The notes below the pieces were generated by a model. It made no database searches. It was not told the DNA's origin and worked only from the letters and a program-made list of their open reading frames with translations. From positions 1 through 40,177 of the forward strand of contig CAJXMG010000025.1 of assembly GCA_913056395.1 (NCBI GenBank): a stretch of DNA of 40,177 nucleotides, written 5' to 3'. The translations under genes were made by a program, and so were the position numbers. The stretch is from an uncultured bacterium (GTDB lineage: Bacteria > Planctomycetota > UBA8108 > UBA1146). Shown here piece by piece: positions 30,481 to 36,393 of this stretch (its first letter is position 1; every line of letters begins with the position of its first letter).

Positions 30481-30557
30481 GGGCGATTAGCTCAGCTGGC
30501 TAGAGCGTTTCGTTGACATCGAAGAGGTCGGAGGTTCGAGTCCTCTATCGCCCACCA
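30481..30557 (+). tRNA. tRNA-Val (GAC), CCA encoded
   Basis: The cloverleaf folds fully: acceptor GGGCGAT with ATCGCCC, D-arm GCTC/GAGC, anticodon stem TTTCG/CGAAG with loop TTGACAT (anticodon GAC), and T-arm GGAGG/CCTCT-type with TTCGAGT. The CCA end is encoded at 30555-30557. A promoter and a terminator flank it, so it is a single-gene unit. Confidence 0.95.
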
Positions 30558-30570
30558 TCATTAAATTTAA

Positions 30571-30605
30571 AAACGCCTTGGACTTTTGACCAAGGCGTTT
30601 TTTAA
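30571..30605. terminator. Bidirectional terminator between tRNA-Val and the peptide gene
   Basis: AAACGCCTTGG (30571-30581) pairs with CCAAGGCGTTT (30590-30600) around an eight-base loop, with A-rich and T-rich flanks on both sides. It serves the tRNA on the plus strand and the double-glycine-leader peptide gene on the minus strand. Confidence 0.92.
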
Positions 30606-30627
30606 ATTGTGAGTTTGGCATGTCGCT

Positions 30628-30816
30628 TTAAAAAGGCGAACCAGGATATACCGGCCCATGATGCCCATCATTACAGTCCCCTCCTCCGCCGGGGCGTGGA
30701 GCGCGCACCGTATCTCCGGGATTACGGACGACGATGCCTCCCGCGGAAACATTCTCTAGTTCTTCATCAGAGACTTTTTCACGAACCACATTTGAGTTCT
30801 TCTTGCTGTCGCTCAT
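30628..30816 (-). CDS. Candidate RiPP/bacteriocin precursor with double-glycine leader (62 aa)
   Basis: The 62-residue product starts at ATG 30816 behind a near-perfect AGGAGG eight bases upstream; a longer frame would bury that site. The first 27 residues look like a leader peptide: polar MSDSKKNSNVV, then EKVSDEELENVSAGG with the Glu/Leu spacing seen in double-glycine leaders of peptide bacteriocins, lanthipeptides and Nif11-like precursors. Cleavage after Gly27 would release a 35-residue core rich in Gly and Pro, with one Cys (48), two His (52-53), a GGGG run and the end PVYPGSPF. No modifying enzyme, C39 peptidase transporter or immunity gene is visible in the window. It has its own promoter-like element and terminator. 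Confidence 0.65.
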   Translation of the reverse strand: MSDSKKNSNVVREKVSDEELENVSAGGIVVRNPGDTVRAPRPGGGGDCNDGHHGPVYPGSPF

Positions 30817-30843
30817 GGCGACCTCCTTCCCATACCCCCCAAT

Positions 30844-31030: not shown

Positions 31031-31303
31031 ATGAAGCACTGGTGGCCTCAAACCGAGGCGATCATCGCTACACTGCTGGCGTATCATTTGACCGCAGATT
31101 CGCATCACGCCGAACGCTTCCAGACGATTCACGACTGGTCACGGAAGCACTTAGTAGAACCGGAGCATGGCGAGTGGTATGGCGACCTGTACTGCGATGG
31201 AATCCCGGTACTAAAACTCAAGAGCAGCCACTGGAAGGGCCCCTACCACCTGCCAAGGAGGCTGTGGGTTGCGGTACAAATCCTGCAAGAGGCGAGAGGA
31301 TAA
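31031..31303 (+). pseudogene. C-terminal fragment of an N-acylglucosamine 2-epimerase (AGE family)
   Basis: The 90 codons from ATG 31031 match only the last quarter of AGE-family proteins: KHWWPQTEAIIATLLAY, then EHGEWYGDLYCDGIPVL and the end WKGPYHLPRRLW. Intact enzymes of this (alpha/alpha)6-barrel family are about 390-420 residues. The frame is closed by a TGA about 30 bases upstream, and no earlier part of the barrel is seen in any frame. There is no ribosome site. It is best read as a remnant left by a deletion or insertion. Confidence 0.8.
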
Positions 31304-31322
31304 ATGGCTATGACATGCAAGC

Positions 31323-31412
31323 CTATTCTGTGGCACCTGCAGCAATGAGAAGTTGTTTGTTTTCAGGTGTCTTGGCGAACTTTAGCGGAGTCATACCAAA
31401 TTTATTGCTTAC
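31323..31412 (-). pseudogene. Remnant of the end of an ankyrin-repeat gene
   Basis: On the minus strand the last 30 codons of an open frame read NKFGMTPLKFAKTPENKQLL and IAAGATE, the pattern of a terminal ankyrin repeat (GMTPL-x-A … LL-x-x-GA), followed by a stop. Sequence further upstream in the frame has no repeat character, so the rest of the gene is gone. An intact ankyrin gene lies 1.4 kb away on the other strand. It overlaps the start of the next gene in antisense. Confidence 0.6.
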
Positions 31413-32113
31413 GTTCAGTGTTCGGTGGAATTCTGCTGATGCAGACCTTGTTCCACCTGCCCTTGATCTCGAATGACTTGGTAAGCTGGATCTTGGGAAT
31501 CTCATTCTTCTTGCTTCTTGCGAACATCGGCAACTGGATCTTCTTCGATGGAAATTCGGAAAGTTTCAGACGATTCTTTGACTACACCAGTGCTGGGCTT
31601 GAAACCTGGATCCTGATCTGGTTTACGATGGTCACCGCCATCGACTCCCAAAACTGGATCAGGTCTTTGACCTTTTTGTCGCTTCCAATCGGCATGGTCT
31701 TCGCCATTCCACTGCTGAGTCCCGCAACGATCAGGCCGTTTGTCTTCCTCGGGGTCACTTCCTTCATCGCCATTTATTGGTCGACCACTGAGGAAGCCTA
31801 CCACTGGCTGGAATTTGTCTATCCGGGGATGAAAGACGGCGGCAAGACCATCGTCATGATTCTGAATGCCATCGGACTTTTGATCCTGGGATTGAAAAAC
31901 CAGCAATCGATTCTTCGGAAAGCCGGATTGCTCCTGATCGGGGTTTCGATTCTGAAGATGTACTTCCACGATCTGGAATCCCTGAAAAATATATACCGGG
32001 TCCTGTCACTCGTGGGAATCGGCCTGCTTTTGATGGCCGGATCCACCCTGTACCTGAAAGCCCAATCCAACATGGCTGCAAGTCGCAGCATGGATGAAAA
32101 GACTGAAGAATGA
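31367..32113 (+). CDS. Multi-pass membrane protein, like the C-terminal part of DUF2339
   Basis: The 248-residue product has seven or eight hydrophobic helices. Its end, RKAGLLLIGVSILKMYFHDLESLKNIYRV, resembles the last helices of DUF2339 membrane proteins, which are normally 800 residues or more. It may be a remnant of such a gene or a short relative. The start is uncertain: GTG 31367 lies inside the antisense ankyrin remnant, while ATG 31439 has GGTGGAA eight bases upstream and looks better. The stop lies in the left arm of a convergent hairpin. It is flanked by gene fragments on its 5' side. Confidence 0.55.
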   Translation: MSWRTLAESYQIYCLRSVFGGILLMQTLFHLPLISNDLVSWILGISFFLLLANIGNWIFFDGNSESFRRFFDYTSAGLETWILIWFTMVTAIDSQNWIRSLTFLSLPIGMVFAIPLLSPATIRPFVFLGVTSFIAIYWSTTEEAYHWLEFVYPGMKDGGKTIVMILNAIGLLILGLKNQQSILRKAGLLLIGVSILKMYFHDLESLKNIYRVLSLVGIGLLLMAGSTLYLKAQSNMAASRSMDEKTEE

Positions 32114-33469: not shown

Positions 33470-34711
33470 TCATGCAGTTTTGCGTATCGGCAGAACCTTG
33501 CCGTAGGTCAGGCAGCGCCACAGCCATTCCAGAGGGCCAAAACTGAAGCGGGAGAGCCACAGGGGTGCCAACGTCAACATGACGGCCCAGACCCCCAAAA
33601 CCACGCCAGCCTGACCCAAACGGGATGTTTCGCCAAACCAGCCGAGACCTGTTCCGCGAAACACGAAGATGGCCAGAAGTGTCTGCAGAATGTAGAGAGT
33701 GAAGGCCATGCGACCACATGCCATGAGGCGGTTCTTCAATCCCTTCAGAACGGGAGTGCCAAACCACAACAGGATCGCTCCGATGTAGGCCAGGGCGAGG
33801 GCAAGGCTGCCCCAGTAGTTCCATTGGGCTAACAGGAAGAAGCTGGTTTCCACGGGACCGAAACCGATCTGTTCATTCTCCCACACCCCCCAGGCCACCA
33901 TCGCCAAACCGATGAGTCCGCCAAGAATAAACAGATTTTTGGCGGTCTGTTTCGCTCCCCTGCCGAGAAGAAAACCGGATTTGAAAAGAGCCATTCCCAA
34001 AAGCATCAACCCGGTGACCCGCCAGACAATCGATTGGGGGAGATACACCAGCTGCATCAACCAGGAGTCCTCACTCATCTTCGGCTGCCATTGGGTGAAG
34101 GTCCCTTGGTGGATCGCCACTGCCTCAGCGATGGCCTCTTCGCCGGGATTCCAGAAATCCAACATCTCCTGCTGCTCTGCCGCAGGCCACTCCTGAAAGG
34201 TCAGTCCACCGGAAACAGAAATGAGTGAGCCGACCAGAAGCAATCCAAAGGACCAGCGCAGCAGTGCTTTCGCGGAAAGCCTGCGGAAGGGATACATCAA
34301 CAGTGCACAGACTCCATAACTGAAAAGGATGTCCCCGCTCCAGAGAAGATGGGCATGAAGAAAACCAAACAATATGAGCAGGCCATTTCTGCGAAGATGC
34401 CCCCAGAAGGGAGACCGCTCCCGTTTCACCGCACGCTCGGTGAAGAGCACGATCCCTGCCCCGAAAAGGATGGAAAAGATGGCCATGAACTTGCTGTCGA
34501 AGAAAAGATGACTGACCAGCCAGACTCCGTAGTTCCCGCCATTCAGATCTCCATAGGCGGTCGGATTGAAATAGGCTGCTTCGGGCATGGCAAAGGCCTG
34601 GATATTCATGACGAAGATCCCGAGTACCGCACACCCACGGATCAGATCGAGTGATTCCCAGCGCTCCCCTTTGGGAATCGACGGCAACGATTCGGAGTCC
34701 TTCGAATTCAT
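33470..34711 (-). CDS. DUF418 family membrane protein (YeiB-like)
   Basis: The 413-residue product has about nine or ten transmembrane helices. The N terminus RWESLDLIRGCAVLGIFVMNI is the hallmark of the DUF418/YeiB family. The middle has DSKFMAIFSILFGAGIVLF, and the C-terminal DUF418 domain has CGRMAFTLYILQTLLA and GPLEWLWRCLTYGK. Family members are inner-membrane proteins of unknown transport or acyl-transfer role. ATG 34711 has GGGGGAAG just upstream; a longer frame to 34927 adds 72 cysteine- and arginine-rich residues and is unlikely. It is divergent from the GT-C-like gene, with a bulged hairpin in between. Confidence 0.9.
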   Translation of the reverse strand: MNSKDSESLPSIPKGERWESLDLIRGCAVLGIFVMNIQAFAMPEAAYFNPTAYGDLNGGNYGVWLVSHLFFDSKFMAIFSILFGAGIVLFTERAVKRERSPFWGHLRRNGLLILFGFLHAHLLWSGDILFSYGVCALLMYPFRRLSAKALLRWSFGLLLVGSLISVSGGLTFQEWPAAEQQEMLDFWNPGEEAIAEAVAIHQGTFTQWQPKMSEDSWLMQLVYLPQSIVWRVTGLMLLGMALFKSGFLLGRGAKQTAKNLFILGGLIGLAMVAWGVWENEQIGFGPVETSFFLLAQWNYWGSLALALAYIGAILLWFGTPVLKGLKNRLMACGRMAFTLYILQTLLAIFVFRGTGLGWFGETSRLGQAGVVLGVWAVMLTLAPLWLSRFSFGPLEWLWRCLTYGKVLPIRKTA

Positions 34712-34742
34712 TCTTCCCCCATCCGAAAATGCTCTCAAAACT

Positions 34743-34773
34743 GAATCAGGGCCTGCCCTTTGGCCGCTGATTC
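34743..34773. promoter_or_regulatory. Hairpin/dyad in the divergent DUF418/GT-C region
   Basis: GAATCAG (34743-34749) pairs with CTGATTC (34767-34773), and inside it GGCC pairs with GGCC, leaving one bulged G and an eight-base loop. It lies midway between the two divergent starts. It could be a shared operator or leader hairpin. Confidence 0.4.
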
Positions 34774-34830
34774 GTACACAATAGTCCGCCATTGGGGAGA
34801 GTTCACCCCGGCAGTTGTGAAACAGGGAGC

Positions 34831-36393
34831 ATGGCCGAAAAAGAGAAACACCCCGGAACACTCCCCGCAGGCGATTCTCGCCTGCTGGCCCGATTCTCAC
34901 TGGCTCTCGCCCTGCTGATCCCCGCACTGATCGCTGCGCATCCGCTTGCCAACAACGATTTGCCGATGCATCTGGCGGTCGGCAACTGGATCTTCGAAAA
35001 CGGACAGGTCCCGAAGAGCGACCCCTTCTCGGCGACGGGTCACGGAGGCCTCTGGGTCGCCCATGAATGGCTGGCTGCCACTCTTTTCAAATCGGTCGAA
35101 TCTCTCGGTCACCCAAACTTTCTCATCGCTCTCGCCGTGCTGCTCTCTGCCTCTCTCGGCGGACTTCTGGAGTTGATCCAACGCAGTTTTGGTGTTCCCG
35201 CCTTCTGGCGACTGCTGTTGCTGGTGCCGGTTTGGCTGGCGGTGGGACGGCGGCTGATGCTCAGGCCCCACCTTCTTGCGTTGAACCTGGTGCTTTTGGT
35301 CTGGTGGATCACACGACATGGACGTCAATCGCCCCGCTGGCTATGGGTTCTGATTCCGGTGATGACCCTGTGGGCCAATTTGCATGGGTCATTCCTGTTG
35401 GGGATCGCCTACATCATGGGTGACCTGTGCATCTTCAGTCAGGGACATACCCTGCCGCGGAAGCAACGCTTCATGATTGCGGGCGGTTGCCTTCTGGCCA
35501 CGCTCATCAATCCCCATGGAGCGGCCCTCTACCTGTTCCCCTTCCAGCTCGCCCTCGATCCGGTTTTTACCGCCGGAGTCTTTGAGTGGCTACCCCCATG
35601 GACCGCCCCCGGATTCATGACAACCCCTGCGGCGATCAGCGGCATCGTGCTCGTCTCTCTGGCAGTGCTGGGAAGTGTCCTGCAGGGTTGGGGAACGGAA
35701 ATCAGCGGCCTGCGCGGACTGCTGAAGCGACCTGGTTTTGCCCTTTCCCTTTTGGCAGCCGTGACCGCAACCCTTCTCGCCTCACGCCAGTTGAGACATC
35801 TGGCTCTGGCTTCCCTGCTTTGGGCTCCGTTGATCGGGGTCCTTTGGGCCACTCTGAAGTGGAGAATCTCCCCCTCTCTCCAGAAGGCAGCGCTGGCATT
35901 CCCGGTAGCTCTGGTTCTACTCCTCAGCTTTCAGGGCTACCCCGCCGGCATCGATGCCCAGGGGCAATGGCGCTGGCGATCCATTGGCAGTGGCTGGTCA
36001 CCCCAAACTCCGGTCATCCCCATCGATACCCTCGTCAATCAATGGGAAGTCTCAGGTGTCCTCCTGTGTGAATATGAATTTGGCGGATTTGCCAGTTACA
36101 TCTCTGGTGGGAAACTGCGACCGACGATGGATTCCCGCAACACGGTCTATACCCCCGATTTTTTCCTCGCGCACGAAGTGGCATTACGCGGTGAAAATGA
36201 GGAACTCCGGAAAACACTGACAGAGGAAGCCTCAGCAATTCTGGTTCATCCCGGAAAACCCGGACGGCGATCATTGGAATTAATTTTGAAACGCTCTCCG
36301 GAGTGGGCGCTGATCAGCTGGTCTGATTCGCTATCTCTGTGGGTCAAAAGGGTTGCAGTCCCCACCAAATATCGATCGGTCTTGCCCAAGTAG
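34831..36393 (+). CDS. GT-C-like multi-pass membrane glycosyltransferase family protein
   Basis: The product of about 520 residues has a dozen hydrophobic helices and a C-terminal soluble domain. Near the N terminus NNDLPMHLAVGNWIFENG, then PFSATGHGGLWVAHEWLAATLF, match the first luminal loop of bacterial GT-C-like proteins, where the Asp is the candidate catalytic residue. WANLHGSFLLGIAY and INPHGAALYLFPFQLA are also typical. The C-terminal EYEFGGFASYISGG and MDSRNTVY segments recur in the same group. ATG 34831 is the likelier start, although its AGGGAG is very close; a TTG at 34792 is possible. The lipid-linked sugar donor is unknown. It converges with the FkbM gene. Confidence 0.7.
   Translation: MAEKEKHPGTLPAGDSRLLARFSLALALLIPALIAAHPLANNDLPMHLAVGNWIFENGQVPKSDPFSATGHGGLWVAHEWLAATLFKSVESLGHPNFLIALAVLLSASLGGLLELIQRSFGVPAFWRLLLLVPVWLAVGRRLMLRPHLLALNLVLLVWWITRHGRQSPRWLWVLIPVMTLWANLHGSFLLGIAYIMGDLCIFSQGHTLPRKQRFMIAGGCLLATLINPHGAALYLFPFQLALDPVFTAGVFEWLPPWTAPGFMTTPAAISGIVLVSLAVLGSVLQGWGTEISGLRGLLKRPGFALSLLAAVTATLLASRQLRHLALASLLWAPLIGVLWATLKWRISPSLQKAALAFPVALVLLLSFQGYPAGIDAQGQWRWRSIGSGWSPQTPVIPIDTLVNQWEVSGVLLCEYEFGGFASYISGGKLRPTMDSRNTVYTPDFFLAHEVALRGENEELRKTLTEEASAILVHPGKPGRRSLELILKRSPEWALISWSDSLSLWVKRVAVPTKYRSVLPK

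What the first reader, a model, noticed from the sequence alone, without database searches (positions are those of the whole stretch)
30628..30816. Orphan double-glycine-leader peptide: candidate new RiPP or bacteriocin
A 62-residue ORF has an excellent ribosome site, promoter-like boxes and a terminator. Its leader ends in EELENVSAGG, and a 35-residue Gly/Pro-rich core carries one Cys and two adjacent His. This arrangement is that of exported or modified peptides, but the core matches no class I know. No maturation or export gene is close by, so any partner must act in trans.
Basis: partly seen in the sequence, partly recalled or inferred. Interest (0 to 1): 0.7.

Follow-up and report, generated by a model that had tools for sequence, protein, structure and literature searches.

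The report
Exported double-glycine peptide, planctomycete family
The small gene is real: it encodes one member of a previously undescribed, lineage-restricted family of peptides carrying a secretion tag, in marine planctomycete bacteria whose genomes usually also encode the matching tag-cutting export pump, although what the released peptide does remains unknown.

Summary
The 62-codon ORF is at the stated coordinates, on the minus strand, with a near-perfect ribosome site. It is a real gene. A leader profile built without it finds it (28.7 bits, E 5e-7). A same-genus relative (G005) has an orthologue at the same place, in front of tRNA-Val(gac), and the differences fall on third codon positions (16/12/37). 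Leader relatives occur in 10 of 16 genomes of its family and in none of the other genomes among 392 Planctomycetota.

The "orphan" label is partly wrong. The genome carries two more such peptides and a complete NHLM-type export operon on contig C46: peptide, cNMP-binding protein, HlyD, C39-peptidase ABC transporter and second ABC subunit. The family's leaders place hydrophobic residues at -4, -7 and -12, the positions a C39 peptidase grips. Leader peptides and exporter co-occur: 9 genomes have both, 5 neither, 2 only one.

No LanC-like, YcaO or SPASM enzyme was found in the window's genome, so I favour an unmodified exported peptide over a RiPP. The cores are polar and hypervariable, and no immunity gene is evident, so "bacteriocin" is unproven. 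Two cautions: the ungapped register puts Ala-Gly, not Gly-Gly, at the cut, and G005 keeps the peptide without a detectable exporter.

The parts
30628..30816 (-). 62-aa double-glycine-type leader peptide gene (leader 1-26 or 1-27, core 35-36 aa)
   Evidence: ORF; leader profile hit made without this sequence; syntenic orthologue in G005 with codon-position bias
30736..30816 (-). leader MSDSKKNSNVVREKVSDEELENVSAGG; hydrophobic V/L/V at -12/-7/-4 if the cut is VSAG|G
   Evidence: alignments A1/A2; LahT co-crystal contacts at -4, -7, -12 (PMC6363468)
30631..30735 (-). core IVVRNPGDTVRAPRPGGGGDCNDGHHGPVYPGSPF; first third (I/V-rich + PGDT) shared with G005, the rest divergent
   Evidence: no Pfam or NCBIfam match
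30822..30828 (-). ribosome binding site AAGGAGG just before the ATG; GGAGGTCGC kept in G005
30563..30609 (.). bidirectional terminator hairpin between tRNA-Val and the peptide gene
   Evidence: fold -20.9 kcal/mol, z -6.1
30481..30557 (+). tRNA-Val (gac), convergent with the peptide gene; fixed landmark of the locus
   Evidence: same arrangement in G005, G009, G011, G013
33470..34927 (-). DUF418 membrane protein, the other landmark of the conserved locus (DUF418, peptide gene(s), tRNA-Val)
   Evidence: synteny

Best explanation
The ORF encodes a precursor of an exported, probably unmodified peptide. Its leader is recognised in trans by the single NHLM-type export system of this genome (contig C46). 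The C39 domain of ABC1 grips V-4, L-7 and V-12 of the leader helix and cuts after the glycine pair, and ABC1/ABC2, HlyD and a TolC-type channel move the core of about 35 residues out of the cell. The same exporter probably serves several unlinked peptides that share the leader and differ in the core. Shown by computation: real gene, leader family, intact exporter operon, co-occurrence, conserved locus. Inferred: recognition in trans, cleavage, export. Least certain: the role outside the cell. I think an extracellular matrix, attachment or signalling role like that of the EbfG peptides of Synechococcus somewhat likelier than killing, because the cores are polar and Gly/Pro/Lys/Asp-rich and no immunity gene is evident.
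For: The leader profile without the window sequence hits it at E 5e-7. Orthologue in G005 at the same locus with 37 of 65 differences on third positions, p 1.3e-7. Cross-genus synteny: peptide gene(s) between DUF418 and tRNA-Val(gac) in the window genome, G005, G009, G011 and G013, and beside DUF418 in G015 where the contig ends. Own genome: C39 ABC1 1,051 bits against an 853 cut-off (TIGR03796), ABC2 835 against 709 (TIGR03797), HlyD 286 against 156 (TIGR03794), with a leader peptide of the same family at the head of the operon. ABC1 aligns over its full length with solved PCAT1 4ry2. Leader and exporter co-occur in 9 of 16 family genomes, 5 have neither (Fisher p 0.008, not corrected for kinship). 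G003 and G004, near relatives whose flanks are 91-97% identical, lack both. No LanC-like or YcaO hit in any of 16 genomes, SPASM in one other genome only.
Against: The peptide is unlinked to the exporter. In the ungapped family register -2 is Ala, not Gly; Gly-Gly, Gly-Ala and Gly-Ser are the described motifs (PMC6363468). G005 keeps an intact orthologue but has no C39 or NHLM hit (94% complete). No expression or peptide data.
Confidence: 0.66

Rival explanations
1. The exported core is a class II microcin-like antimicrobial used against related bacteria.
For: Double-glycine leader plus C39 type I exporter is the class II microcin/bacteriocin layout; cores are hypervariable, and genes are gained and lost between close relatives, as in antagonistic systems.
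Against: No immunity-type gene is recognisably paired with the peptides in the loci read, apart from ankyrin-repeat genes near some of them. Cores are polar and mostly lack a hydrophobic stretch; no bacteriocin family reaches the window peptide.
Confidence: 0.25
2. The peptide is a RiPP precursor modified by an enzyme elsewhere in the genome, then exported.
For: NHLM exporters were first found with modified peptides (Haft 2010, PMC2887384); the core holds a Cys and two His.
Against: LanC-like, YcaO and SPASM domains absent from this genome; no modification enzyme noticed in the NHLM operon regions read. Other maturase classes (MNIO, ATP-grasp, cytochrome P450) were not searched for.
Confidence: 0.1
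3. The window copy is a decaying member: an old peptide locus whose cut site has drifted and which sits in a region of gene remnants.
For: Ala at -2; neighbours 31031-31303 (C-terminal epimerase piece) and 31367-32113 (C-terminal DUF2339 piece) are remnants; G002, G003 and G004 lack the peptide at this locus.
Against: Frame intact with a good ribosome site; third-position bias against G005 in both leader and core.
Confidence: 0.17

Closest known systems
NHLM/NHLP export system and its NHLP/Nif11 leader peptides (Haft, Basu and Mitchell 2010, PMC2887384)
   Same: Same three-gene exporter (TIGR03794, TIGR03796, TIGR03797); conserved leader ending in a Gly-Gly-type motif, hypervariable core; several peptides per genome.
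   Different: Leader is 18-27 residues and has no nitrile hydratase or full Nif11 domain; no modification enzymes found; most peptides lie away from the exporter.
EbfG1-4 / PteB of Synechococcus elongatus (Parnasa 2016, PMC4997328)
   Same: Small proteins with a short GG-type motif, secreted with the help of a C39-peptidase transporter.
   Different: EbfG genes are co-transcribed in one operon and act in biofilm formation; no sequence link was tested, and the role here is unknown.
Class II microcins / class IIb bacteriocins (TIGR03949, CTB family NF038167)
   Same: Leader with the hydrophobic -4/-7/-12 pattern; some relatives give weak hits to these models.
   Different: The window peptide gives no hit; no immunity partner seen; polar core.

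Membership tests
Double-glycine (C39-processed) leader peptides | Gly-Gly/Ala/Ser at -2/-1 with hydrophobic residues at -4, -7, -12 | tested here: inconclusive
   Family consensus V..L..VAGG fits exactly (contacts in PMC6363468). The window peptide fits the hydrophobic pattern only with Ala at -2 (VSAG|G), or fits Gly-Gly with the pattern shifted by one.
Double-glycine (C39-processed) leader peptides | Conserved leader followed by a variable core in homologues | tested here: met
   More than 30 leader matches in 10 genomes, cores dissimilar
Double-glycine (C39-processed) leader peptides | C39 peptidase transporter in the genome | tested here: met
   G000:C46 ABC1, TIGR03796 1,051 bits; full-length match to PCAT1
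NHLP / Nif11 leader families (TIGR03793, TIGR03798) | Profile match of the leader to the family model | tested here: not met
   No NCBIfam hit for the window peptide at E up to 10; a few relatives hit at about 1e-3 to 1e-4
RiPP (lanthipeptide, azol(in)e, SPASM-type) | Modification enzyme in the genome | tested here: not met
   PF05147, PF02624 and PF13186 without hit in the window's genome; other maturase classes not searched
Class II bacteriocin/microcin | Antimicrobial activity and cognate immunity | not testable with these tools
   No immunity candidate recognised beside the gene; activity needs the bench
EbfG-type biofilm peptides | GG-motif small protein secreted by a C39 transporter and needed for biofilm | not testable with these tools
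   Only the layout is shared; function needs the bench (PMC4997328)

The most novel reading that the evidence does not exclude
One exporter serves a scattered, quickly changing set of peptides in which a fixed leader has been joined to cores taken from other proteins. In relatives one core reproduces the start of mature Flp pilin (ATAIEYGLIA) and another the MopE metal-binding motif (EVCDGKDNDCDG). The peptide genes move or persist beside valine tRNA genes, so the set would be a modular system of secreted mimics that act on pili or on the cell surface.
Probability: 0.08. Interest if true: 0.75.

Novelty: new member of a known kind. Interest (0 to 1): 0.45.

Why it matters
Haft et al. noted that NHLM exporters are more widespread than the leader families used to find them, so some must carry unknown substrates. 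This family is such a substrate candidate: short leaders, no modification enzyme found, mostly unlinked, and confined to one uncultured marine planctomycete family among the genomes sampled. It shows that peptides of this kind can be missed when genes are sought only next to the exporter, and it gives leader sequences with which to look for them in ocean metatranscriptomes and metaproteomes.

Tried and rejected
Direct Pfam and NCBIfam scans of the window peptide: nothing at E up to 10. A single-sequence scan of named genomes: no relative; the leader alignment succeeded. Phage and viral origin: no match in phage records or viral contigs. Core as a piece of a MopE repeat (DCND....YPG, as in L072): the resemblance needs a one-residue gap, Pfam gives no hit to the core alone, and MopE repeats were not found in this genome; set aside. 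Insertion of the peptide as a cassette into an intact locus: rejected as the simple account, because peptide genes sit at the same place in another genus; loss in G002-G004 is likelier, and the neighbouring break is a deletion of about 3.2 kb relative to G002 that cut the DUF2339 gene. Upstream RNA structure: not different from shuffles.

Full report
Observation. The ORF exists at the stated coordinates but on the minus strand: ATG at 30816, stop ending at 30628, 62 residues, with AAGGAGG about six bases before the start. One Cys, an adjacent His pair and the GG-type leader end are as described. The terminator claim holds: a hairpin between the ORF and the convergent tRNA-Val folds far better than shuffled sequence (z -6.1). 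The promoter claim is weak.

It is a gene. Neither Pfam nor NCBIfam recognises it. Searching 59 related genomes found a syntenic orthologue in G005 (E 2.4e-5) and many peptides sharing the leader. A leader profile built without the window sequence scores it 28.7 bits, E 5e-7 among 9,269 open frames. Over 51 aligned codons, window and G005 differ at 16, 12 and 37 first, second and third positions, the pattern of a protein kept by selection, and it holds in leader and core alike (leader 6/7/18, core 10/5/19).

The locus is conserved. In G009, G011 and G013 (another genus) and in G005, one or two leader peptide genes lie between the DUF418 gene and a convergent tRNA-Val(gac); the tRNA side carries the same neighbours as the window in G009, G011 and G013. 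In G015 two peptide genes follow DUF418 up to the contig end. In G002, G003 and G004, which are 91-97% identical to the window in the matching flanks, the peptide is absent. The window itself has a deletion scar here: 31367-32113 is only the C-terminal part of an 859-residue DUF2339 protein, and 31031-31303 only the end of an epimerase-like protein.

Family and range. The leader profile finds peptides in 10 of 16 genomes of the family, 1 to 9 each, and in none of the other genomes among 392 Planctomycetota sampled. Named records holding relatives are mostly planctomycete MAGs, among them Planctomycetia bacterium TMED53; one is labelled Bacillota. The consensus is MTDDKKHDDKDRKKVSDEELEDVAGG, or a short form such as MSDDNKISDADLEGVAGG at the exporter operon.

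Partner. This genome holds one complete NHLM-type export operon on contig C46: leader peptide, cNMP-binding protein, HlyD (TIGR03794), C39-peptidase ABC1 (TIGR03796) and ABC2 (TIGR03797), the last three above their curated cut-offs, with a TolC-type gene about 5 kb away. The same operon order is seen in relatives, without a recognisable modification enzyme. A third peptide lies on contig C42. Across 16 family genomes 9 have leader and exporter, 5 neither, one (G005) the leader only, one (G002) the exporter only, on a contig cut before the place of the operon peptide. The Fisher p of 0.008 does not allow for kinship.

Mechanism. [quoted passage not shown] The family has V, L and V/I/L at these places. 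The window peptide keeps this pattern if the cut is VSAG|G, which puts Ala at -2; the ungapped alignment with G005 (IVGG|GVIVGTPGDT against VSAG|GIVVRNPGDT) supports this register. Ala at -2 is not among the described motifs, so either this exporter tolerates it, or the cut is shifted by one, or the copy is impaired. With LanC-like, YcaO and SPASM domains not found in this genome, an unmodified product is likeliest, though other maturases were not searched.

Role. Not shown. Core variability and loss between near relatives suit antagonism or signalling. Polar, Gly/Pro- and Lys/Asp-rich cores without a clear immunity partner suit a matrix or attachment role, as for the EbfG peptides of Synechococcus, secreted through the C39 transporter PteB (PMC4997328). 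I lean slightly to the latter.

Comparison. This is a new family of a known kind: C39-type leader peptides served by an NHLM exporter (PMC2887384). It is not a member of the NHLP or Nif11 leader families by profile, and not shown to be a RiPP or bacteriocin. A literature search of the open-access library found no paper on this family; that library lacks most subscription journals.

Noticed in passing
L029:9788-10048, L030:700-960, L025:3770-4078, L026:5474-5653: In four genomes of a sister genus the leader is followed by ATAIEYGLIA(A/S)LK (IKYG in one copy), the start of mature Flp pilin (PF04964, E about 1e-4, below the curated cut-off), without the pilin's hydrophobic helix.
   Followed up: partly
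L026:5766-6026: Another leader peptide has a core ending EVCDGKDNDCDG, the second half of the MopE metal-binding motif (PF11617, E 1.3e-5, just under the cut-off).
   Followed up: partly
window 30481-30816; L024, L027, L028, L134, L130, L138, L140, L022: Leader peptide genes recur near valine tRNA genes of three anticodons (gac, cac, tac), several with ankyrin-repeat or DUF2339 genes nearby. Whether this exceeds chance was not tested.
   Followed up: partly
window 31031-32113: Gene remnants: C-terminal piece of a GlcNAc 2-epimerase-like protein and C-terminal 248 residues of a DUF2339 membrane protein that is 859-864 residues in near relatives; about 3.2 kb missing relative to G002.
   Followed up: yes
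L028:167-403, L105:1462-1677, L023:33-227, L027:404-616: Several cores end in a shared motif such as HNTTRSNR, HNSTRSNR or NYSSARSNR, so part of the family has a conserved C-terminus.
   Followed up: no
L049:13144-13944, L028:167-403: Some precursors carry a second internal leader-like motif (VAGG...LSDEELKDVAGG; VAGG...LGNVVGG), as if two cores or duplicated cut sites lie in one peptide.
   Followed up: no
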